From NCBI GenBank assembly GCA_947172415.1, contig OX359200.1, positions 4,590,501 through 4,654,500 on the forward strand: a DNA stretch of 64,000 bases, read 5' to 3'. The position numbers and the translations under genes are program-made. The notes below the pieces were generated by a model, which did not search any database, was not told the origin of the DNA, and was given only the letters and a program-made list of their open reading frames with translations. Every line of letters starts with the position of its first letter. The stretch's first letter is position 1. This stretch comes from Chondrosia reniformis. Taxonomy: Eukaryota > Porifera > Demospongiae > Chondrillida > Chondrillidae. Positions 2,346-49,160 of this stretch are shown in pieces.

Positions 2346-2960
2346 AATGTTTTTAGGGGCTGCCACATGGTTTTTGCAAATGGCGGCGTTCAGGAAGCTT
2401 TAGTTAACGAAGCTTTTCCATCGTTATTTATAAAGTTCAAGACACTTAAGCGTCCTCAATCGTTAGTATTACGAATATATATATTAAATCCCAACAATGC
2501 AGCCAAGTAGTTCGAGTTAATTCGGGGGGGCGGCAGCCCCACGAGTTTTTAAACTCGAAATACTTGTTATTTTAACTTGTATAATGCAAACAGGCATAGG
2601 TTTATACATATATATATATATAGTAAAAGCATCATGTATGATTATTGTTTAAATTGTTTCAGTATATATCCAGATGAGGTAGAAGTTGCTATTAAAATTT
2701 TGTGAGCACTGTCATCCCTACTTTAACTATTTTTTCTATTTAACTTGTGTATAATTAATCAGCTGTTTAGTCTCTCTATATATTATATTAATAGATATGG
2801 CTCCACATTGTAAGACTATATATCCATGATAAGTATTCACTATACCTATATGGTGAATTTTGTAATATACATACATGATAATTGTTTTCTGCAACGTTTA
2901 TAGTATATATTAACACAATCACTGAAGTAAGGCTGGGTAAACATTCAAGATTCGATGTTC
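2100..2960. repeat. Segmental duplication, copy 1
   Basis: This stretch matches 4740-5390 nearly block by block. It has the same family A hairpin, the same aaacaggcataggtttatac block, the same tgagcactgtcatcccta block and the same tttctgcaa-gttta-tatattaac block at the right. Copy 1 additionally carries the family C repeat (2380-2585), and its right end joins a PPM1D-like pseudogene where copy 2 joins the exon of a PH-domain gene. Confidence 0.6.
2380..2585. repeat. Repeat family C, uninterrupted copy (empty target site)
   Basis: This repeat matches, in reverse orientation, the DNA on both sides of the 7.46 kb transposon (8614-8776 and 16236-16270). The junction cttTAgttaac at 2398-2407 is the intact target: the transposon sits in another copy exactly at this TA, which is duplicated there. 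The right end is the family's hairpin (caagtagttcgagtt ... aaactcgaaatacttg), also seen near 8614, 35105 and 49083. Confidence 0.75.
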
Positions 2961-6894: not shown

Positions 6895-7190
6895 TTCATC
6901 TATAAGTAGGAATGGATGAAATACATGGCCGCCCTATTCAATGTATTATCAATTACAACATAACAACGATAGGATTTTCGGTTGCATTCCAGAAATATGC
7001 CATATTCTTTTTTTTTTCAAATTCATTTAGCTGGAGCTAACATGCTAACTTGCGCAGGTACATACAGGTACCAAATCGTCATTAATGTTTCCGAACAAGG
7101 GAAATTGGCTATCTTAGGTTTCAACACGCTCTATCCGAAGCTTAAAGGTGCTAAATATGGGCCCTCTTTGGATGCCATTTTTTAATTAAG
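6895..7190. repeat. Repeat family B copy
   Basis: It begins with a taggaatgg-type end plus catggccgccctattcaatg and ends with caacacgctctatccgaag. The same blocks occur at 21920-22330 (acgcttcggatagagcgcgttg to agggcggccatg), and partly at 8290-8530, 54030-54310 and 61140-61400. No protein is encoded; a non-autonomous element family with conserved ends. Confidence 0.55.
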
Positions 7191-7497
7191 TATCATATTC
7201 TCTCTATATACGTAAATAAGTCACTCTATTTAAAAATTGGTGGTACTGCTGGCCCCCACAATCAAATTGCTTAACCACTTTGTAGGGCTCATATACAGTC
7301 GTAGTCTTAATGATTATGGACACTTCAATATTTTAAATTCAGTTGATAAATTTGGGCCTTTTTCGGATGACATATTTTAATTTAGAGCTCTCAACTATAT
7401 TGTCTACTCTCTTTTTAATTGCTATTTATTTCAATTTTAACTTGAAGGCCACAATTTTTAAAAAAAGGGTTAGGTTCTCTAATACCAGCGTTAAAAG

Positions 7498-7552
7498 GAC
7501 AAAAAAGAAACAAGTTTGTCTTAAAAAGACAAAAAAGAAACAAGTTTGTCTT
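7498..7552. repeat. Two direct repeats at the Penelope-like element end
   Basis: Two copies of a roughly 30 bp unit containing aaaaaagaaacaagtttgtc stand directly beside the hammerhead-like motif. Each carries gacaaa and tttgtc, so it can also fold. Short tandem units at one end are common in Penelope-like elements. Confidence 0.6.
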
Positions 7553-7555
7553 GCC

Positions 7556-7589
7556 GACGTTTCGGTCAGGGTACTCTGACCTTCTTCAG
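7556..7589 (-). ncRNA. Hammerhead-ribozyme-like motif of a Penelope-like element
   Basis: On the minus strand the order is CTGAAGA, a perfect six-pair stem (GGTCAG / CTGACC with a six-base loop), then GAAAC. This fits the hammerhead core CUGANGA - stem II - GAAA. It sits about 50 bp beyond the stop of the GIY-YIG reading frame on the same strand, where Penelope-like elements are known to carry such motifs. Stems I and III are not obvious, so activity is uncertain. Confidence 0.6.
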
Positions 7590-7639
7590 GGCGAAAATGA
7601 AGCTAGTGAGTATTTGTCACTATATAGCCTTGCATCCCA

Positions 7640-8614: not shown

Positions 8615-8776
8615 GTATTTCGAGTTTAAAAACTTGTGGGGCTGCCGCCCCCCGAATTAATTCGAACTACTTGGCCGCATCGTTGGGATTTAATATATAT
8701 ATTCATAATACTAACGATTGAGGACGCTTAAGTGTCCTGAACTTTATAAATAACGATGGAAAAGCTTCGTTAACTA
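8614..8776. repeat. Repeat family C, left half of an interrupted copy
   Basis: This half runs from the cgagtttaaaaact hairpin to gcttcgttaacTA and is the inverse of 2401-2580. The missing part (TAaagcttcctgaacgccgcc) resumes at 16236, after the 7.46 kb transposon. Confidence 0.75.
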
Positions 8777-8925
8777 CACTGTAAAAACACTGTGGTGAAC
8801 ATCACTACCAATTGTAGTGATGTTCACCACCTCCTGTGTTCACTACATGGTGGTGACACAAGAAATTAGTGAAGTTTACTAGCTATACCATATTGGTATA
8901 GTTGGTGGAGTTCACTGACAAGCAA
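8777..8925. repeat. Left terminal and subterminal repeats of the transposon
   Basis: After the cactgtaaaaa tip, the word gtggtgaacatcacta and its inverse tagtgatgttcaccac follow each other, then tgttcactac, ggtggtgaca, agtgaagttta and ggagttcact. Such clusters of short inverted and direct words are transposase binding sites in CACTA elements; that role is inferred here. Confidence 0.7.
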
Positions 8926-10185
8926 GACAAGAATTTCTGTAGCCAAGGACGACCAAAGACTACAATTACAATAGATGTTGATGAGATGGGTTCATGGGAA
9001 CGCACCACCCCGTTGGGTGGTCCCTTGGTCGCAAATTCTAGCGAATGGAATTCATGGATCTTTAAGCAGAATGTCGAAGCCTATTTCTGGGTTTATAATA
9101 TTTTCCTGTGACAACACGCCAAATTCTTTTCATGAGCTAATACTGCTTACAGCGATTTGCTTTGCTTTTGCGCACTCCAGAGTCCTTCTTTACCGAAAGT
9201 AAACGCCATTTTTCGTGATTGCGCAACGACCTCGTGTTGGGCTTCGTCTGAGGTCTTACAGTTGGCACTGCGTAAGGACCTTTAACTGCTGCTGAAAGAT
9301 GTTTAAAGTTAAATACCTTAATCAGGAACAGTTCGTAGTCCCCTGTGGTTAATTTTGTTAAAGTTTACAGCGACCTCAGGATGGTTGGGTACTTCTGTTA
9401 CCTAGTATTTGATCCATACATCAAAGTTTGTTTTGTGGGACTAAAGCAGTTAATGTCATCGATTTGTCTACGTTATAGCATGTCTATAGTTATAGTGATT
9501 CTGTCTGTGGTTGTTGAGGGTTAATCGGTTGTTCCTGTGGTTAGAACGTTGTGTTTTGAGGTTATAGATTCGACTCTGACAAGTTATAAGTTTTTCTGTA
9601 GCTTTGTATGTGTTCAGGATTGGACCCTACATGTGTTTTTATGAAGGTTAATTGACCAAGTTGTATGTTCTCGGTTCAAGGAGTTGTAGTATCAATAGCA
9701 TTTGCAACTTCCTTCACACATACACGTGCACACACATGCAGTTATGGCTTTAGTGTTGTATGTTTGAGTTTCAGGTACGCTGCACTGATGAAGACCCAAT
9801 AAGGCCGAAACAGTGTGGTACATGCATATTTTTCCTTGCATGTATCACACTGTCTGCAGCTCCTGTTTGCACATTGTATATATCACTTACAATGTTGTAT
9901 AGCAAAATAGGAAATAGGTGACTATAACACAAATGTGGGCTGCCATTTTTAAATAGTTAAATGGGAAGTTGTTGGAAAATATATGTGCAACTCATGAAAA
10001 TTGCAAGTGTGGCATTAGTGTGGATCTTATTCAGGCTTATCTCGACAATTGGATGTTCTGCTTCATATATACCCGGGCATTACAGGGCTAGATCCAGGGG
10101 GCAGCATGCATATTTATGGTGCCAATATGTATAATAATATAATACATTTTGTCTTGTATATATAATTATTGCATCAAGTGTAAAA
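8926..10185. other. Left non-coding arm of the transposon
   Basis: No coding exon was found between the subterminal repeats and the transposase stop codon. Short frames at 8902-9202 match nothing. The only recognisable structure is a hammerhead-like core at 9785-9814. The arm is much longer than needed for transposition and may hold older insertions. Confidence 0.5.
9785..9814 (+). ncRNA. Degenerate hammerhead-ribozyme-like motif
   Basis: CTGATGA, then a weak stem (GACC / GGCC with a six-base loop), then GAAAC. The core letters fit CUGANGA...GAAA, but the stem has one A-C mismatch. The following cagtgtggtac is repeated inverted about 35 bases downstream (gtatcacactg). Probably a remnant of a Penelope-like element or related ribozyme-bearing repeat inside the DNA transposon. 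Confidence 0.4.
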
Positions 10186-13100
10186 TTAAAATACATGATA
10201 TTTGAGGGTTACAAAGATTCTGTTACCGAAGGGCTTTCTACATAAAAGGGGGTGGTAATCACGGAGCTGTTCATAACGGTACACAAGAGTCTGATTGTCG
10301 TGGAAAGCCTCATAAGCATGAAAATGATGGTTAAAAGAGATTGTGATCAGGGGAGAAATAATGAATAAACATTCTAGGTGGGGGGTAATAATAAATTCTG
10401 TGATTGTCCCAAAAATAGGTGTGTCATCTTCAATATTGTAAATGATAACTTGCCCCCTTGTGTAAGTAGTGCCGTTGATTACACTGGATCGTACCCTGCA
10501 TGTTGAAAATAGTATAGTTAATGCTACTGAACTGTAGTGATCATGCCAAGAGATGACTGTGGAAAGTTGCTGTCAACACTTGTTTATATATGCAGTGGTC
10601 TGGGCCATAATTGTAAGTGACTCACCTATGGACAGTCGAGTCATCATCTAGCTCCGGTGCAGCCCTCAGGACTACTTCCTTGTAGTCCAGTTGTTGAACT
10701 TCCACTTGATTTCCTATAGAATTAAACAGTAAGACTGAGTCAACTTACATTTGTACATCATGGAAGGAAAATGGGTGACTATAGCTAGGAGATGCAGAGC
10801 TTGGCAACTATAAACCTTCCTCTGACCCCCTTTCAAGAAGTACATTCACGTAATAGCTGCCATAACAAAACAATTACCTGTAGGATAAGTTGGGCTGCTT
10901 CGTAGGTATGTTGTTGCATCTGCCATGTTGTAGCACATGTACAGTTGGTGATGCTCAGCAAGGGTTTTTGGGATGTTCTTGAAATTTCCAAGCACACGCG
11001 CCAAGTGCTTAAAATAGCTATGCTTGGCTTCATATCGCATGCACCACATGCGGGAAAGAGGGCCACACCTGCAAAATAGCAACAGCAACTAAATTAAAGA
11101 ACATATGACATACAGATACAGTACAATGTCATGCCATTAGCACCATACATACCGTTTCATCCATGATGACAGATGTACCATATAATGCATCTTGGGGATC
11201 AGGCGCCTCTCAGGATACAGGTCTCGGAACTCTGTCAAGAAGTCCTCCACCAGCATTGCAACATAATCAGCTTTGTCCGCAGTAGTAACAGGGGCAAAGA
11301 CATAGTCCATGATGCTTAGTAGCATCAAGAAGTTTTCCCAGAATAAATCCCCTTCAGGGATATTGTGTCCGATCAGAAGGGGCAAGAAGCGTCCCAAACA
11401 CCACATCTGGGATGCTAAATGTAAGCATACATACGTGGATACATTTGGAGTCATCTTGTACATTATTACATTAATTATGTTATTACATGGATTAACTATT
11501 TAAAGTTTGTACGGGAAACATACCTGATTGCTTTAGGTGACCATCCACTTGTACAGATGTTGATGCAAGTGCTGTTGGTTTGTTCTTGACCTCTGAAGGT
11601 CCATACTTGAAGGAGGCTATACGAGTGTTCAGAAGTTCCAAGGAAAGCATCTTCTCTTCACGGATAAAGTGGATAAGTAAGTGGCGCATGCAGAGCTCGA
11701 GCGATCCCTCCAGAATATCGTGCATGATATCTGGGACGAGGCCATCTGTCACATGAAAGTAACGGCACGAGTTCAATACGGAATTGCACACAATGCCATA
11801 TGTAGTTGCAATGTGATCCTGAAGTGGTCCTCCTAGTCCATTGCAGTGGGTATCATACAAATCTTGTGTACGTAGCTGGAAAGCATTTTCGGTAAACTGC
11901 ACAAAGAATACATGAGCAAAGTCACACTAATGTGCAGCTATTTACAAATGATTTCAATAATGTATAATACCTTTGTTTGCATGTCTTCGTCCACTGCCAT
12001 GCAGTACTGACATTTCTGAAATGCTGAAGCTAGGGCCTTGAAACCTCCAATACTCCATGAAGCGAGGTTGTCTGCTGATACAACAGTCAATGTGCCCCGA
12101 AAAGCCATTGGCATGCCATCAAACTGGAACTGAACCCCATCCTCCTTCATGAAAAACAACTTTATTAAAGCAGTGAGTGCCATATCATGTACAGAATACA
12201 GTACTACCAAGCACACCACACCACTATTCAAAGCTACTGCTAACTTTAACTTCGAATGGTAAATCAATATATATAATTACATTCATGAGCATGATTGACC
12301 TTTTCAAGTTCTTGTATGGCTTCAACAATTGGTTGTAAAATCCTCTCAATGCCATACTTAACAATGAATGCATGCTTAACAGCACAGAGGAGTTGAATGC
12401 TCTTCAATGAAGACCTGAGTTTTGGGTGAAGGTTGCCAAGGACATAGTATACCAATCCTGAAGGAAAAAGTTGAACATGCAGATATGCATGGTGAGAAGA
12501 CGTGATTATATAACTATATACAGTGAATGCAGCAGGTAAACCCACCTTTTACAAGCTAACATAAAGTACATAACTAGGTGGTTAGTCTTGTCAGGTATAC
12601 ATATATTGTAGGTAGCCATTTTGGTCAGGAAAAACAAAAAAAAAAGTCGTTATTGCCCAGGTAACTCAAAGTAGGTTAGTGTAAATTAATGAGTGCGACA
12701 AGAATAATGGTAGAGCTTCGTTTTTCTTACCTAACTTGTGTTTCTTTGCCTTGCTGCCAATAGGGTTGCACACCTCGGCCTCATCATAATAGAGTTGTAT
12801 CTGAAGAGCACAGGGGTTGTCTCGGAAGAGGTCAGAGCAGAGGAAGAGTCTGCCATCACAATAATCTCCTAGCCTGTTGCCTGGTAGACTGTGAGAGTTC
12901 ATCACCTATATTGTAGGACCAAACAGTACATGAAATTTAAGAATCATGCAAATTACAATAAATGAATAATACCTTTTTTATGTATACAAACTTTATAAAT
13001 AGTGCAGATTGTAATTTTATGTTATTTTGTACTTTATAGTTACATAGTTATATTTATCTATAATATAATACATCTATATAACCATACCTGCTCTCGAACA

Positions 13101-14121
13101 ATGTCTGTTTGCAATAAGCACTGAAGCGATTCGAGAAGTGGAACCTCATAGCAGCAATCTGACTTTTCAATTAGCTTTCCATTCTCCTCTTCATAGTGGC
13201 GTCCAAGAACACGTTCTTCAGGCTCCTATACAAAACATATTTATGAAGCAGCTGCTACACATACACACAGCTAGTACAGTCAATATAATATGGTAACGAG
13301 CTATAAACTAAAATTAAATAATAAATATAAACTTCTACTATATTTGTATACATTCACCTAGTATATATACACAGATGCATGCATGTGATAATTGGAAATA
13401 AGCAAGCATGCACCACAATACTGTATACATTATTATATAGCTGTTGGAAATATGCAGAACTCGCCAGGAGGTGAAAGTTTTCCTTAAAGTACTTGTGCTG
13501 CATGTACTGTGTTCCAAGACCATCAAAGGGTGATGAGTCATGAAAGCATTCAAGCACTTCATCCAGGTTCCCATCATGCAAATGTTTCTGCATCTTATCC
13601 TGCATCCGAAAATTATATAATACAGATAAAATACACACACAAACACACACCAGCCAATATTGAAGCTAACCTTCATTGTCTCCATGGCATCTTTCCAGAG
13701 CCCCTGTATATCCTGTACCATGCCGTTGAGAGCTGTCTGTGTTACATTTCTCTCTTCTCGAGTTTTCAGAAGAAACAAAGCTACTGATCTCTTTGGGTCA
13801 TAGTCTTCACCTGTCCTCATTGTTCCCCCCTCTTCTACTGTCGCAACGTCGTGTGCATCTGCACTCTCTGTATCCCCATTTTGGCTCCTAATGCCAGTGA
13901 TACGGTCTTCGGCTTGGGTAGACTCAGGTCCAAGCACTTCTCTGCATGTGCTTTCGGTACACGTGGGAACGAAATGACTCGTAGTTCTTGTATACTTCTG
14001 GGCAAGAGTCAATTCCACATGGTATTGACAGTCCAGGGTCAAAGCGATGGTTACCCATGTGTCGAAGGACTGCAGAAAAGCTCTGACCAGCGAACGAATT
14101 GCAAATATTACAGACAAACAT
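10186..14121 (-). CDS. C2H2 zinc-finger plus CACTA-like transposase (about 818 aa)
   Basis: Exons (5' to 3'): 14121-13671, 13599-13465, 13225-13088, 12905-12731, 12457-12300, 12144-11971, 11897-11524, 11414-11153, 11068-10878, 10713-10626, 10495-10186. Exons from the second onward keep one phase to a TAA stop. The N-terminus has two C2H2 fingers (CNICNSFAGQSFSAVLRH, CGIDSCPEVYKNYESFRSH). The body has NPIGSKAKKHKLG, FQKCQYCMA, LVPDIMHDILEGSLELCMRH, MHYMVHLSSWMKR, MRYEAKHSYFKHLA and NFKNIPKTLAEHHQ. This layout (D-x-MH, then H-x-VHL, then a GP-x-x-R-W segment) resembles TNP2-type CACTA transposases and a multicopy family in fish and cnidarians. It presumably cuts and pastes this element. A one-base frameshift separates the fingers from the body near 13950, and the second intron would need a GC donor, so this copy may be disabled. 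Confidence 0.7.
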
Positions 14122-14222
14122 AACTGGGCTAGCTATGAGCCAACAGCAGAATACGTAAGCGCGCCAGTTGCGCGCGTCAGGCGTTGTTATAGGAACGGAC
14201 GGTAAAACTGCAGAGAGAAGCC
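14122..14222. promoter_or_regulatory. Shared divergent promoter region of the transposon genes
   Basis: The two start codons point away from each other across only about 100 bp, so both genes must be driven from this stretch or from within each other's first exon. It contains ttgcgcgcgtcaggcg, a GC-rich island in AT-rich DNA. No TATA box is clear. Confidence 0.45.
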
Positions 14223-15876
14223 ATGGAATTTGCAAAGAAGTCGGTAGATGAGCTAGGAGAGTGGCTCTTGGCAGAGAAGTTTTCGGAGAACACTGTTAGT
14301 GTCTTCAAAAGTACGTAGCTAAACTAGTAAGTCTGCATTTGGTACGTAGCTAGCTCAATACAAACAACAAGAGTATAAGTGGCATAATAATTGAATTTTA
14401 CAGTATTAAGTCGCCGTAATATGAATATGTAACTTTCTAAACTTACTAAAGCAAGTGTCACAGCATCGCACGCCGCCTATAATAAGTTAAAATGACTAAA
14501 TAATCCTTTATTTAATATCAATTTTCTCGTTCTTGTGCATGGCGCCGCATATACCGTATAAATAAATGGAAACCTATTCAAACTAATAATTTTCGTCAAT
14601 GAATAAAGCGTTTCTACATTGAGGACATCTCTCGGCGAATAGCATCCCCTCCAGTGCGTACAGGCGAGTTTATTTCGTCAAAAACGTCACTTTGAGGTAA
14701 ACACTCAAACATTTGTTTATAGATAAACAAATGGTCATACAATATTGTTTATAATAAACACATTGACCTTACCTATGCATCTCTGCCCTACAGATGGCTT
14801 GAAAAAGTATCATTCAAAGAAAAACTTAAGATAAACTTCCCGTTTCTTTGAGACGGCCATTTTTAATTACTACTTCTACTGTGTAATATTGATTCTTTGC
14901 AGAAAATGAGGTAGATGGAGAAGGATTTCTTCTGCTCACAGAGGGACAGATACAGTCCATGGTCAAAGCAATTGGAGCTCAGAACAAACTCATATCCCGC
15001 GTCAAGTATCTAGTTGCCTCAAGTCGTGACGTAAGTATATATTATATAGCTGTAATTATAATACCGAAACATTAGAAATATTGCTTTACCACATTGCTTA
15101 GGACTTACTGAATGATCTGCCCGAAAAGCTTCCTGATGGTGAGCTCTAAAATATACTGAACCATGTACATGCATGCATGCAATCATTGGTAATTCTATAA
15201 GTGCATGCATGAATGCACATACACATACAACCTATTGTTTTGACTTTGTTCTCTCTCCTATACAACAGATGGCCAGAGCGTACTTGCCTTCTGCTGCCTA
15301 TACTACCTTCTGCCGGACACAAGGGCAAAACCCGACCAAACACGGGTGATCACTATAATCGAGGTAAGCATCGTGTTTACCTGCATACCCATTATCTTCA
15401 CAAAAAATTACCAAGTAATAGCACGATTACAACATTATACAGAATGATGTGTTCAGATCAGATTAACTAGCACAATCTATATACATCTTTAATTTATATA
15501 GTATATGCACTTGTGTTCTCACTTGTGTGACATGGTGTATTATACATGTATATTTGCCATAATTTGGTTCTCTTCATAGGATGGTGATAGTGTGAAGGAG
15601 GCGGTTACAAAGGTGCCCACTGCCCAACCATGCATTATCGTACGGGGATCTTTGGATGCAATCAAGGAAGCAGTTCTGATAGTGGAGAAACAAGTCATTG
15701 CAACCATATCAGCGAAGGAAGTACCCCTGGTTCTGCTGAGTGCGTTTTACGCGTACAATATGCATTACACAGAAGGTTGTACAAATTTGTACACCTTCTT
15801 TGAAATCATTTTTTTCAAGCATAAAAAGCCAGCAAAGAAGACCAGACTCACTGCTCTTCTTGCCAGTCTTGCATAA
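14223..15876 (+). CDS. SAM-domain accessory protein of the transposon (214 aa)
   Basis: Five exons: 14223-14310, 14903-15030, 15102-15138, 15269-15363, 15580-15876; they join in phase with a total divisible by three. Residues 1-70 form a sterile alpha motif (VDELGEWLLAEKFSENTV, then FLLLTEGQIQSMV and the last helix ISRVKYLVASS), a protein-protein interaction fold. The C-terminal half (QPCIIVRGSLDAIKEAV, VLLSAFYAYNMHYTEGCTN, PAKKTRLTALLASL) resembles the tail of multicopy SAM-bearing proteins in fish and invertebrate genomes whose function I do not know. It starts head-to-head with the transposase inside the same terminal repeats, so a helper role (oligomer formation or DNA-end bridging) is inferred. 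All exons are open and it looks intact. Confidence 0.75.
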
Positions 15877-16084
15877 ACACATCCTTTTTTGAGACGTTAT
15901 GTACATAATCATGTACACTGTTTTATTCATCATTTTTTCAGTAGCAGCATGCATGCCTTATTATATACCTTTAAACCATCAATTTTTTGCCTTATTTTCA
16001 ATATTGTATGAATTACAAACTATTATATGTTGTACTATTATTATATCAGTATTATGTATAATAATTATTATAATAACAGCTGAG
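15877..16084. other. Right non-coding arm of the transposon
   Basis: Very AT-rich sequence between the SAM gene stop and the subterminal repeats. An aataaa-type polyadenylation signal is not obvious. Nothing else was seen. Confidence 0.5.
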
Positions 16085-16235
16085 AAAGTGATTCACACCT
16101 ATGTAGTGAACTTCACTAATACAAAAGTAGTGAAGCTAATAGTTGGTGATCATCACCACCCAAACTGTAGTGAGCCCTGTGGCAAGGTTTTCACTACTTT
16201 TTGTTAGTGATCTTCACCACTTAGTTTTTACAGTG
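16085..16235. repeat. Right terminal and subterminal repeats of the transposon
   Basis: tagtgaacttcacta, agtagtgaagct, ttggtgatcatcaccacc, ttttcactac and gttagtgatcttcaccac precede the tip tttttacagtg. The words match those at the left end in inverse order. Confidence 0.75.
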
Positions 16236-16720
16236 TAAAGCTTCCTGAACGCCGCCATTTGCAAAAACGATGTATTGACGTATAAATTAAGTGTTACAAT
16301 ACGTAGTAGCGTATGAACCCGTATTATATATATAGATATCTAGATATATATATATATATTAATCAGTATTTTAAACAGTACAAGACTTTAGTCACACTGT
16401 TGCAGGCTTTGAAATTCTCAACTACTGCATAGAGAGTAGTAGTTGATACAGATCATCCAATTGCAAGGTAGAACACATGACCTACCAATTACCTTTTCAC
16501 ACCTTAGTATAGACTAAAGATGATGCATCTGCATGCCATATATCAACAAAGGTTCCAGTCTTAAAGGGGTCTCAGCTAATAACCACAGCAGATTTGATTT
16601 GCCTGGTGAGGGAGCTAAGAATACCGACGGTTGGTTGCATCCATTCGCATAATCAACAGGGTTAGAGACCATTTTGTAACTTGTACACAAGGGACATAAT
16701 ATGACATACGTATATAAAGG
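16236..16720. repeat. Remainder of family C copy, then repeat family D
   Basis: 16236-16270 completes the interrupted family C copy. From about 16380, acaagactttagtcacactg, accttttcacaccttagtat, gatgatgcatctgcatgcca and agcagatttgatttgcct match 18120-18440 and, inverted, 43190-43360. No coding. Confidence 0.6.
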
Positions 16721-34900: not shown

Positions 34901-37900
34901 TTGTCATAGCCGTTGAAAAAAAGGATGATCTTCTGTTGCAATTCTGCAGTGACATTTTTGCAACGTGACGTGTTTTATTAAATGTGTATGCAGATTATTT
35001 TGCAATATAAAGCATGTGCAAAAAGGTCTTCTGCGAGATATTGCCTTAAAATTGATGGCATTCAAGCGACCGGAATCGGTGAACTGGACATCTAAGAACC
35101 AGCAAGTAGTTCGAGTTTGGATCAGGCGCCCCACAAGTATTTTAAACTCGAAATAGTTGTTTTGAATGTCAGACTATTTGCTGATCCTCAGCAAAGCCTA
35201 TATTAACTGCACATTAAACATACCTCATCAATCCAGTCTGCAGGTTTGTATATGGGAAGACCAGCTTTGTCCAACTCATCGTCTAGCTGCTGTAAAAATG
35301 GGAGGCCTTTACCCCAGTAAGCTGCCTCGTGTAATGGAGTCCTTCCAAACTAAAGTTAAAATTTAATATTATGATGTTAACTATTTGATTAAAAATGATA
35401 TATGCAAAGTCAGCATATGTCTCACTTTATCTCGTTTTGAAATGTTGGCCTTCAATTTTCCAGAGAACAGATCTTGTGCAAAGTAAGTTTCTTGACTGCC
35501 ATTGCTTTCTTCTTTATCACTAATTCCTGCTGTTTCTTGTCCAAAATAATCAGCTGCTGCAAATGCCAAATGCAAAGGAGTCCTTCCAACCTAAAGACAT
35601 TACATCAAATTTAATATGTATTTTTAGAAGGACTTAGAGCATGCAGAAGACAATAAGACAAAGACTCCCAGGGTTACTGAAAGGTGGACTTCCCAGAAAC
35701 AGCTGACTGATCCAGTTGAATTAACAATTAGTATATGTGGCTAAATGCCAACCATGTTTTACAAAAAAATGCATTTTAGATTATATTACATTGCAATTGA
35801 ATGCTTATGATTTTCACAGTTGCATTACTGTTGTGAAGCCTAAAACTCACATGATTGGCTTTGTCAATATTCAATCCACTAGCCAGGTCATCACTCATTA
35901 GAAATTTGAAAACTTTCTTTTTTCCATACATGACAGAGTAATGAAGTGGAGTATTACCAGCTGCATCACCTTCATTCAAGGATGGATGTGGAACTTGGGA
36001 GGTAGACAACAAGTTTTTTACTATTTCAACATTATCTTGTAAAACAGCCCAATGTAGGGGTGATTTGCCATCCTGTAATGAGATAATTAAGCTCTGTAGG
36101 TTATTCTCAAACATTTTTGTTAGTTATAAAGAAGCAACCTAGTATGTTATTGGTAAAGAATTGTGGTAAAATAGGAAAACAGAAAACTATATACGTTTAC
36201 CTGATCTACTAAGAGGTGATAATCTTTTTGTGTCCAATCAATTGCAAGTAACTTAGTGACTGCTTCATTGTTGTTATAGATTACTGCCTGTTGTAACAGT
36301 GTTCTTCCATCCTGTATTACATAATTACACACTCAACAATTATCTCCCAATGAATAATTTTAGCGCACAATTAAGAAATTAAAGTATGTATATCACTAGC
36401 ATGTGTTAAAGTAATTGCAAACGTACTTCTCAACAGCTTTTTCATTCAAAACTAGTATTTTATACACAATACAAGCAAACAATTAAGAATCTACTGTACA
36501 TACTTTTCTCTTCAAGTTGACCTGAAGCCCATTAGAAGCCTTTTCTAAGAGCATGTTAAAAGCCTCAATTCCTCGTTGTCCATTTCTTATGGCTAAGAAC
36601 AAAGGACTCTCTCCTAGTACATCATCAACTTTGCTAACATCAGCTCTACCGAGAAGTAACCTCTCCACCAGTTTGGTGTCCTGTCTGACAGTTGCCCAAT
36701 GAAGAGCATACTTTCCATCAGCGCCAGGTTCAGCATTTGGATCAGCACCTCTCTTCAAAAGAGCATCAGCCATAAACCATACCTAAATTAAACATCAAAA
36801 CAGTTAAACTGATTCAGTTTTACATTACACCATGTTACAGGCAAGTTGGTGTTGAGATGGATCAAAAGGATGACAGGGATAAGATAGCAACAATTCTAGG
36901 AATGGCAGTAAAGGAGGAAGGAGTGGGAAGAATTCTGGAGGGGATGTGGGACAAGAGATTCCTAGATTTATAGATATCATTTACATGATCATAATTTGTT
37001 GTTTTGTTACTCTGCCAAGCATTTTATTTTTTTATTTTTTTTATTTTTTTCTTTAGAATCTGTTTTGTTAATTCTGTATAGTGCTTCATGGGGTTTACTA
37101 AGTACTTTCACTTAATACATACAAGAAAATGGTTCCCTAGGCCTTGCATGATATAGAATGATATAGAAGTGTATATATGGGTGATTAATACGTAATATGT
37201 ACTTATTATAGCTTTGCATGTACATTTTAAAGGTAATTTGTAAGTAAAAAGAAGACTATTTCAAAATGTGATAAGGCTAATTTATAGGATGGAACATTTC
37301 AATGTTGGGAGAGCATCTTTGCTTACTGCATTGTGGTTGTATGCTGTATTCACTACGTGAGCAAGTGTCTTGTTTTTGTCTCCAGCAAATATTTTTAATT
37401 CCAGCAGACTATTAACCAGGACATGTACAGTAACTTCCGACTTTTCTTTTTCACCCTCTTGAATCTGCCTGAACTGCTTGTTCTTTCTCTGTAGTTTGAT
37501 GCGCTCGAGGTGTATTTTCCTTATACCTTCCTGCAAAGCAAATAAACAATGTACGTATATTATTCTACACAAATAGTTTATAAGTCTTAAAGAAGCTAAG
37601 GAACTATGGTATAGTTAATTATATACGTATGGCTATATGCCTAACCATAAGTATAGGCATACCTTTATGTGTTTCAAACTCTTTAGCTCCTCTAGCCACG
37701 CCTCTTCAGTTTGCTTGTAATCAAGCAGCAAGACAACTTTCTCATTTAGTTCTTCCCATTTGCTCAAAGACAGATCTTTCTTCGGGTCATGATCAACGGC
37801 TCCAGGCTTATCTTCCGGTGCTGTATTATAATCCGTATCCTCACCTTTCACCTCGGAGTCTGTAGTTCCTTGTAAATTAAGACCATCATCAGACAGCAAT

Positions 37901-48818: not shown

Positions 48819-49160
48819 TATATATATATATATCTGTCACCAAAATGGCGGACGTTCGGCTGGCTTTCGTTTTCTAGCTTAAAACTAGCTTTCTCTTCCT
48901 TAGCGTCGAACATTAAACAAACGAAAAGGATTTAGAAACCATATTTACGAATACTATGTAACGTAAAGCTTGCGTGAAAGCGTTTTCTAGGAGATATAGC
49001 CTTGAAAAATTAACGGCATAGAACAAGAGTCGAGCGGAATCGGTTAAGCGGACATCTAACTAGAACCGGACATCTAATTTGTACCAGCCAAGTAGTTCGA
49101 GTTTGCTTAGGGGCGCCTGGCGCCCCACGAGTTTTTTAAACTCGAAATACTTGTTCTGAA
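48819..49160. repeat. Composite repeat: pogo-like interior joined to family C end
   Basis: 48838-49020 (aaaatggcggacgttcggct ... gcgttttctaggagatatag) matches the inverse of 19510-19725 inside the pogo-like element. 49037-49155 then gives the family C end with the hairpin agtagttcgagtttgc ... ttttaaactcgaaatact. Confidence 0.6.

What the first reader, a model, noticed from the sequence alone, without database searches (positions are those of the whole stretch)
8777..16235. Intact-looking two-gene CACTG transposon with its empty site in the same window
Seen: inverted CACTGTAAAAA ends, matching subterminal words, TA on both flanks and a second copy of the interrupted repeat (2380-2585) with one TA at the exact junction. 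Inside are only two genes, head-to-head: a C2H2 plus CACTA-like transposase and a SAM-domain protein. Known: plant CACTA elements also use two proteins, one of them binding subterminal repeats. Inference: the SAM protein is the functional counterpart of that second protein, which would make this a distinct animal two-component transposition system.
Basis: partly seen in the sequence, partly recalled or inferred. Interest (0 to 1): 0.88.

Follow-up and report, generated by a model that had tools for sequence, protein, structure and literature searches.

The report
Sponge transposon with conserved partner gene
A jumping gene of an animal, probably a sponge, carries two genes, a cutting enzyme and a partner protein; the same pair recurs in many diverged copies of the genome, so the partner looks like a working part of the machine, although what it does is not yet shown.

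Summary
Window 8777-16235 is a 7,459-bp DNA transposon with CACTG...CAGTG inverted ends, a TA duplication and an empty site with one TA at 2401-2402. One strand encodes an open 12-exon, 784-aa transposase with C2H2-like fingers and the CACTA-clade (CMC) catalytic motifs; the other a 5-exon, 214-aa SAM protein.

The pairing is not accidental. In this genome 19 of 27 transposase clusters have a relative of the SAM protein within 8 kb (0.23 expected by random placement), all 19 on the 5' side; but 33 of 52 partner clusters have no such neighbour. What is conserved is the partner's C-terminal part, not SAM as such. A diverged lineage whose left end is CACTGTAAAAA has SAM + middle + C-terminal parts, SAM exons of 88 and 128 nt as in the window. 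Other lineages carry another N-terminus. The window's protein lacks the middle part that a sibling copy keeps.

Most likely: an animal CACTA-clade element with an accessory transposition protein. Equivalence to plant TNPA is inference. Six literature searches listed no description; Repbase is not searchable here.

The parts
8777..8811 (+). left terminal inverted repeat (CACTGTAAAAAC...)
   Evidence: arm 8775-8811 includes the TA
16201..16235 (-). right terminal inverted repeat (...GTTTTTACAGTG)
8775..8776 (.). TA target-site duplication, left
16236..16237 (.). TA target-site duplication, right
2380..2585 (-). second copy of the interrupted repeat = empty site, single TA at 2401-2402
8777..8976 (.). 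left subterminal region dense in GTGGTGA/TAGTGA-type words, including a 17-bp perfect hairpin 8792-8830
16036..16235 (.). right subterminal region dense in the same words
10186..14121 (-). transposase gene, 12 exons, 784 aa; D249, D344, C364/C367, H578/H582, E602; two N-terminal C2H2-like fingers (by eye; homologues' profile matches zinc fingers)
14223..15876 (+). partner gene, 5 exons, 214 aa: SAM domain + conserved C-terminal part
14223..14310 (+). partner exon 1 (88 nt, phase 1), first half of SAM
14903..15030 (+). partner exon 2 (128 nt), second half of SAM
15102..15138 (+). partner exon 3; DNA similarity to the C2 sibling copy (L046) begins at 15100
15269..15363 (+). partner exon 4, in the conserved C-terminal part
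15580..15876 (+). partner exon 5, conserved C-terminal domain; modelled as three strands and helices, mean pLDDT 69

Best explanation
This is a cut-and-paste DNA transposon of the CACTA/EnSpm-Mirage-Chapaev clade with a conserved second gene. Shown by sequence: boundaries, 2-bp duplication, empty site, complete DDE and zinc-ligand motifs, and repeated linkage of the partner gene to the transposase. Inferred: the transposase cuts at CACTG...CAGTG and joins the element to 2-bp targets, mostly TA; the partner is an accessory protein of transposition that self-associates through its N-terminus (SAM here) and helps to bring the subterminal repeats and transposase together, or to regulate them, as TNPA does for Spm. 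The window's copy lacks the partner's middle part, so its partner may be a reduced or regulatory form. My weights: two-gene element with a conserved partner about 0.9; partner acts in transposition about 0.65; it binds the subterminal repeats itself about 0.35.
For: Boundaries and empty site. Motifs in 28 aligned proteins (27 of the 29 homologues found, plus the window's): D249 in 25 (3 gaps), D344 28, C364 27, C367 28, H578 and H582 28, E602 26. Of those 27 homologues 9 match Pfam Transposase_21 and 5 DUF4218 at E <= 0.01. Partner beside 19 of 27 transposase clusters, always 5': 11 head-to-head, 8 tandem. Open partner models of 490, 495, 488 and 464 aa at L054, L051+L052, L053 and L067; those of L054, L051 and L067 are only 24-30% identical to one another, L053 is closer to L051 (62-78% per exon match). 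Elements with both ends seen: L051+L052 13,802 bp TA, L053 7,788 bp TT, L055+L056 10,685 bp TA, the last with only N-terminal transposase exons found. C7 and C14 copies are 100% identical over 1,150 bp starting at CACTGTAAAAA, with no match in the 651 bp before it. Exons 4-5 against the L046 copy: dN/dS 0.44 (10 synonymous, 15 nonsynonymous changes).
Against: 33 of 52 partner clusters have no transposase within 8 kb, and 8 of 27 transposase clusters have no partner at E <= 1e-3. Later searches added one transposase cluster (C11:2698929-2701220) whose only partner-like hit within 8 kb lies downstream (C11:2707436), and two more partner places without a counted transposase (C1:4714460, C8:4146876). 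The random-placement figure ignores that transposons cluster, so it is too favourable. The C-terminal and N-terminal models match no solved fold at E <= 0.001, so no DNA-binding fold is shown. The window's partner lacks the middle part. No expression or activity data. The window's transposase itself gives only a sub-threshold DUF4218 match (E 0.51). A short copy with CACTG at one end and CAGTG at the other, L049, shows no matching flanks by eye. A dN/dS of 0.44 from 25 changes is weak.
Confidence: 0.7

Rival explanations
1. The partner is a host-derived passenger or a self-standing gene family picked up by transposons; it travels with them but plays no part in transposition.
For: 33 of 52 partner clusters stand apart from a detected transposase; N-termini differ among lineages.
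Against: Linkage in about ten diverged lineages by my grouping, always on the transposase's 5' side there. Three unpaired clusters that I looked at are truncated elements: C4:4246874 keeps transposase N-terminal exons, C8:2282686 the right end, C1:3082k the left end; most others were not examined. Only 57 of 201 transposase candidates were scored, so unpaired counts are upper bounds.
Confidence: 0.17
2. The partner counters host silencing or acts in expression control rather than in the transpososome.
For: SAM domains are common in chromatin proteins (recalled); the best PDB sequence match of the window's SAM protein is L3MBTL3 (E 0.00098).
Against: The SAM match is general; the subterminal repeat arrays are what plant CACTA second proteins act on (PMC2613891 passages).
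Confidence: 0.25
3. The SAM gene is an accidental capture private to this copy.
For: A search with the SAM exons alone found no close second copy in the genome.
Against: The diverged C7/C14/C2/C8 lineage has a Pfam-recognised SAM (23.0 bits, cut-off 22.6) with the same exon lengths 88 and 128 nt and the same phase after exon 1; direct sequence identity is weak (31% over 42 residues, E 0.04).
Confidence: 0.06

Closest known systems
Plant CACTA elements (Spm/En, Tam1, Tgmt*) with TNPD/TNP2 and TNPA/TNP1
   Same: CAC-starting ends, subterminal repeat arrays, TNP2-related DDE transposase, second element-encoded protein (PMC2613891 passages)
   Different: 2-bp rather than 3-bp duplication; partner is a separate gene, head-to-head or tandem, not a splice product of one unit; sequence relation to TNPA was not tested; transposase carries C2H2-like fingers
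Animal CACTA relatives such as SmTRC1 (PMC1636069)
   Same: 2-bp duplications (7 of 14 copies there); Transposase_21 homology
   Different: SmTRC1's extra products come from alternative splicing of one locus; no partner gene of this kind appears in the parts read
ProtoRAG / RAG-like transposons (PMC7204232)
   Same: Two-gene animal elements of the wider clade, CAC ends
   Different: 5-bp duplications, convergent genes, RAG2-like partner; here 2 bp, divergent or tandem, and no Pfam match but SAM above threshold in the partner (passages)
Plavaka and ESTA (PMC12730594)
   Same: CMCT clade with C(2)C and H(3-4)H motifs; ESTA has TA duplications
   Different: Plavaka ends are TGT..ACA or CATCA..TGATG, hosts in the passages seen are fungi; no Plavaka model was listed among Pfam matches (that Pfam holds one is recalled)

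Membership tests
CACTA/EnSpm-Mirage-Chapaev clade (CMC/CMCT) | D, D, E with C(2)C and H(3-4)H between second D and E | tested here: met
   motif definition from PMC12730594 passages
CACTA/EnSpm-Mirage-Chapaev clade (CMC/CMCT) | 5'-CA..TG-3' ends and 2-5 bp duplications | tested here: met
   CACTG ends; 2 bp in 4 of 4 gene-bearing elements with both ends seen: TA, TA, TA, TT. A short derivative, L049, shows no matching flanks by eye
EnSpm/CACTA proper | sequence similarity of the transposase to tnp2 (PF02992) | tested here: inconclusive
   window protein no PF02992 match at E <= 1; 9 of 27 relatives match at E <= 0.01, best 9.4e-6 but 25.4 bits against a cut-off of 28.6
EnSpm/CACTA proper | subterminal repeats bound by an element-encoded protein | not testable with these tools
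   repeats seen; binding needs an experiment
ProtoRAG / RAG-like transposons | 5-bp duplication, convergent RAG1-like and RAG2-like genes | tested here: not met
   2 bp, head-to-head or tandem, partner without above-threshold Pfam match other than SAM
Plavaka | TGT..ACA or CATCA..TGATG ends | tested here: not met
   CACTG ends
SAM domain | Pfam gathering score | tested here: met
   window SAM_1 23.1 against 23 (whole protein), 26.6 (SAM exons alone); C7 SAM_3 23.0 against 22.6

The most novel reading that the evidence does not exclude
An animal two-component CACTA-clade system whose second protein, built of an exchangeable N-terminal module (SAM or another) and conserved middle and C-terminal parts, the C-terminal one with no solved fold match, assembles the transposon ends: an independent, non-homologous answer to the job that TNPA does in plants and RAG2-like does in ProtoRAG.
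Probability: 0.4. Interest if true: 0.78.

Novelty: new variant of a known kind. Interest (0 to 1): 0.63.

Why it matters
RAG1 came from Transib, a relative of this clade (PMC12730594 passages), and members repeatedly acquired a second protein. A conserved but apparently unrelated partner in an animal lineage would show how such two-part machines arise, and gives a concrete pair to test. Three copies, on C7, C14 and C2, share an identical 160-bp left end, and C7 and C14 are identical over 1,150 bp; this suggests recent movement, so laboratory assays are realistic. It also puts a family of otherwise unannotated partner proteins on a transposon instead of on the host's gene list.

Tried and rejected
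Rejected: that the SAM exons are a private capture. After I thought so (the SAM-only search found no second close copy); the C7 lineage overturned it. Rejected for lack of support: that the N-terminus of the L051/L053/L054 partners is a PB1 domain. It looked so from recalled motifs, but the profile's only chain was a designed immunogen at E 0.16, the model has mean pLDDT 50 and no fold match at E <= 0.001. The C-terminal model (pLDDT 69) also matched nothing at E <= 0.001, and its profile no PDB chain at E <= 5. Middle-part and transposase profiles found no relative in viral contigs, nor did P0031. The genome-contig scan gave one 3.2-kb contig, L066, with no partner hit at E <= 1. The partner profile search returned 11 short proteins (118-183 aa) and scored only the 7,997 best candidates, so absence elsewhere is not shown. 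Within about 1.5 kb of the transposase in L015, L019, L020, L021 and L036 no partner was seen; L042, overlapping L021, gave one hit at E 0.67. The right end of the C7/C14 lineage was not reached, so its duplication is untested; left flanks are TG and TA. Literature searches on SAM or SAMD3 with CACTA/EnSpm/DNA transposons and on sponges (listings of 20, 25, 20, 3, 20 and 10 papers seen) showed nothing describing this pair; Repbase Reports and most subscription journals are not held.

How one search was made: the 102 transposase matches were grouped by hand into 27 clusters (C5:4496k and C5:4500k may be one). Partner rows typed: 18 of 18, 51 of 58, 65 of 94; the 36 rows left out lie in or within about 200 bp of clusters already listed. 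Clustering gap 4 kb and window 8 kb were my choices. One search came later and is not in the count.
Full report
What is in the window. The element spans 8777-16235. Its ends are inverted over 37 nt at 86%, it is flanked by TA on both sides, and the repeat into which it jumped has an uninterrupted second copy at 2380-2585 with a single TA. With the element removed and one TA kept, flanks and empty site agree at 187 of 196 columns, 2 of them gaps. Short GTGGTGA/TAGTGA-type words crowd the outer 200 bp of each end (15 against 9 in the 7,059 bp between; words chosen after looking).

Two genes. The - strand gene has 12 exons and 784 codons without a stop. Aligned with 27 of the 29 homologues found (P0019 and P0029 were left out), it has D249, D344, C364-C367, H578-H582 and E602, conserved in 25, 28, 27, 28, 28, 28 and 26 of 28 sequences; this is the motif set given for the CACTA/EnSpm-Mirage-Chapaev-Transib clade (PMC12730594, passages seen). 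Of 27, 9 match Pfam Transposase_21 and 5 DUF4218 at E <= 0.01. The + strand gene has 5 exons and 214 codons, a SAM domain at the Pfam threshold and an unannotated C-terminal part.

The genome. The window lies in a 117.4-Mb genome of 15 contigs; that it is a sponge is my inference from the best hits. A transposase search gave 102 exon matches that I grouped into 27 clusters (only 57 of 201 candidates scored). Partner searches with the window, L054 and L051 proteins gave 55 clusters, 52 at E <= 1e-3. Of the 27 transposase clusters 19 have a partner at E <= 1e-3 within 8 kb, against 0.23 expected from random placement; two more have weaker ones (E 0.002 and 0.006), six have none. All 21 lie on the transposase's 5' side; of the 19, 11 are head-to-head and 8 tandem, one tandem case (C2:5785917) being a fragment. 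The expectation ignores that transposons cluster. Copies of one family are counted apart: C7, C14 and C2:2208k are near-identical and C8:2110k close; C11:14k and C2:26k are near-duplicates. By my grouping about ten diverged lineages remain; their partners mostly share no more than about 60% identity with the queries. Conversely 19 of 52 partner clusters have a transposase nearby and 33 do not; three of these that I looked at are truncated elements, most others were not examined. A second transposase query added C11:2698929-2701220, whose only partner-like hit within 8 kb (C11:2707436) is downstream, and four distant single-exon relatives at 22-27% identity that I did not count. The C7 partner query, run after the count, added partner places without a counted transposase at C1:4714460 and C8:4146876.

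Anatomy of the partner. Spliced models at L054, L051+L052 and L053 are 490, 495 and 488 aa with seven exons; they have a distinct N-terminal exon, a middle region and a C-terminal region. The window's protein aligns with them only from about residue 77 on (exons 3-5): 35% to L054 over 140 columns, and 27% to L051 over 115 columns from residue 84 (L053 was not in that comparison). At L067 (C7) the partner has ten exons and 464 aa; its first two exons are 88 and 128 nt, the first in the same phase as the window's, and give a Pfam SAM_3 match of 23.0 bits against 22.6. Sequence identity over this SAM is weak (31% over 42 residues, E 0.04), so the exon structure carries much of the argument. SAM exons of this lineage are present at C7, C14, C2 and C8, and partly at C11:4349114. 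A SAM-only query with the window's exons also gave two weak matches, C3:9020357 (E 0.006) and C6:3211706 (E 0.16), away from the clusters. A sibling of the window's element on C2 (L046) is 93% identical over 808 bp from 15100 on but upstream has middle-part exons and no SAM match at E <= 0.01 in the stretch held; similarity begins within two bases of exon 3. So the window's partner appears internally shortened. Between the two copies exons 4-5 show dN/dS 0.44 from 25 changes.

More element boundaries. L051+L052 (13,802 bp), L053 (7,788 bp) and L055+L056 (10,685 bp) have CACTGTTAAAAC...TTTTCA[AC]AGTG ends with 2-bp duplications TA, TT and TA; in L055+L056 only N-terminal transposase exons were found. 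The C7 and C14 tandem-type copies are 100% identical over 1,150 bp starting exactly at CACTGTAAAAA, with no match in the 651 bp before it; that end occurs at seven places, three at 100%. Their right end was not reached. The C8:2282686 sibling of the window's element shares its last 274 bp at 100%. A short copy, L049, shows no matching flanks by eye.

How it may work. Shown: boundaries, target duplication, motifs, linkage. Inferred: DDE cut-and-paste at the CACTG ends; partner acting with the transposase. In plants both TNPD and TNPA are required for Spm transposition and TNPA binds the subterminal repeats (PMC2613891, passages). The element here has both a repeat array and a second protein, and SAM domains commonly self-associate (recalled), so an end-assembly or regulatory role is the most economical reading. 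No fold match supports DNA binding. The lack of the middle part in the window copy makes it possible that this particular partner is a regulator or a decayed form.

Compared with known systems. RAG-like elements pair convergent genes and leave 5-bp duplications (PMC7204232, passages); SmTRC1 leaves 2 bp but makes extra proteins by splicing (PMC1636069, passages and section 8); Plavaka has other ends. I therefore place the element in the CMC clade, leave the exact superfamily open, and rate the two-gene form a new variant of a known kind.

Noticed in passing
window 14355-14868: Intron 1 of the SAM gene holds dispersed repeat sequence with matches elsewhere in the genome.
   Followed up: partly
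L048 about 6911-7607: The C8 sibling's right end is interrupted by an insert starting CAGTAAAACCTC and ending GAGGTTTCACTG next to TA, resembling a pogo/Tigger-type element (name recalled).
   Followed up: no
window 49085-49155 and 35125-35161; L053 6852-7025; L055 8718-9295: Parts of the repeat into which the element jumped recur, also between the first two exons of partner genes.
   Followed up: partly
G000 C7:787066-788931 (L015): A transposase relative at 37% identity runs in one open frame of 621 aa without the introns of the other copies.
   Followed up: no
G000 C12:5128277, C1:4885708, C1:7350571, C14:2501915: Distant single-exon relatives at 22-27% identity, possibly further CACTA-like families.
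   Followed up: no
G000 C7:1030090-1033860 and C14:1125500-1127055: A stretch of about 360 bp at the transposase's 3' end recurs nearby at about 80% identity.
   Followed up: no
L066: A contig filed under a Cycloclasticus symbiont of a sponge encodes a transposase fragment, so it is probably host DNA.
   Followed up: no
window 13464-13226: One transposase intron uses a GC-AG splice pair.
   Followed up: no
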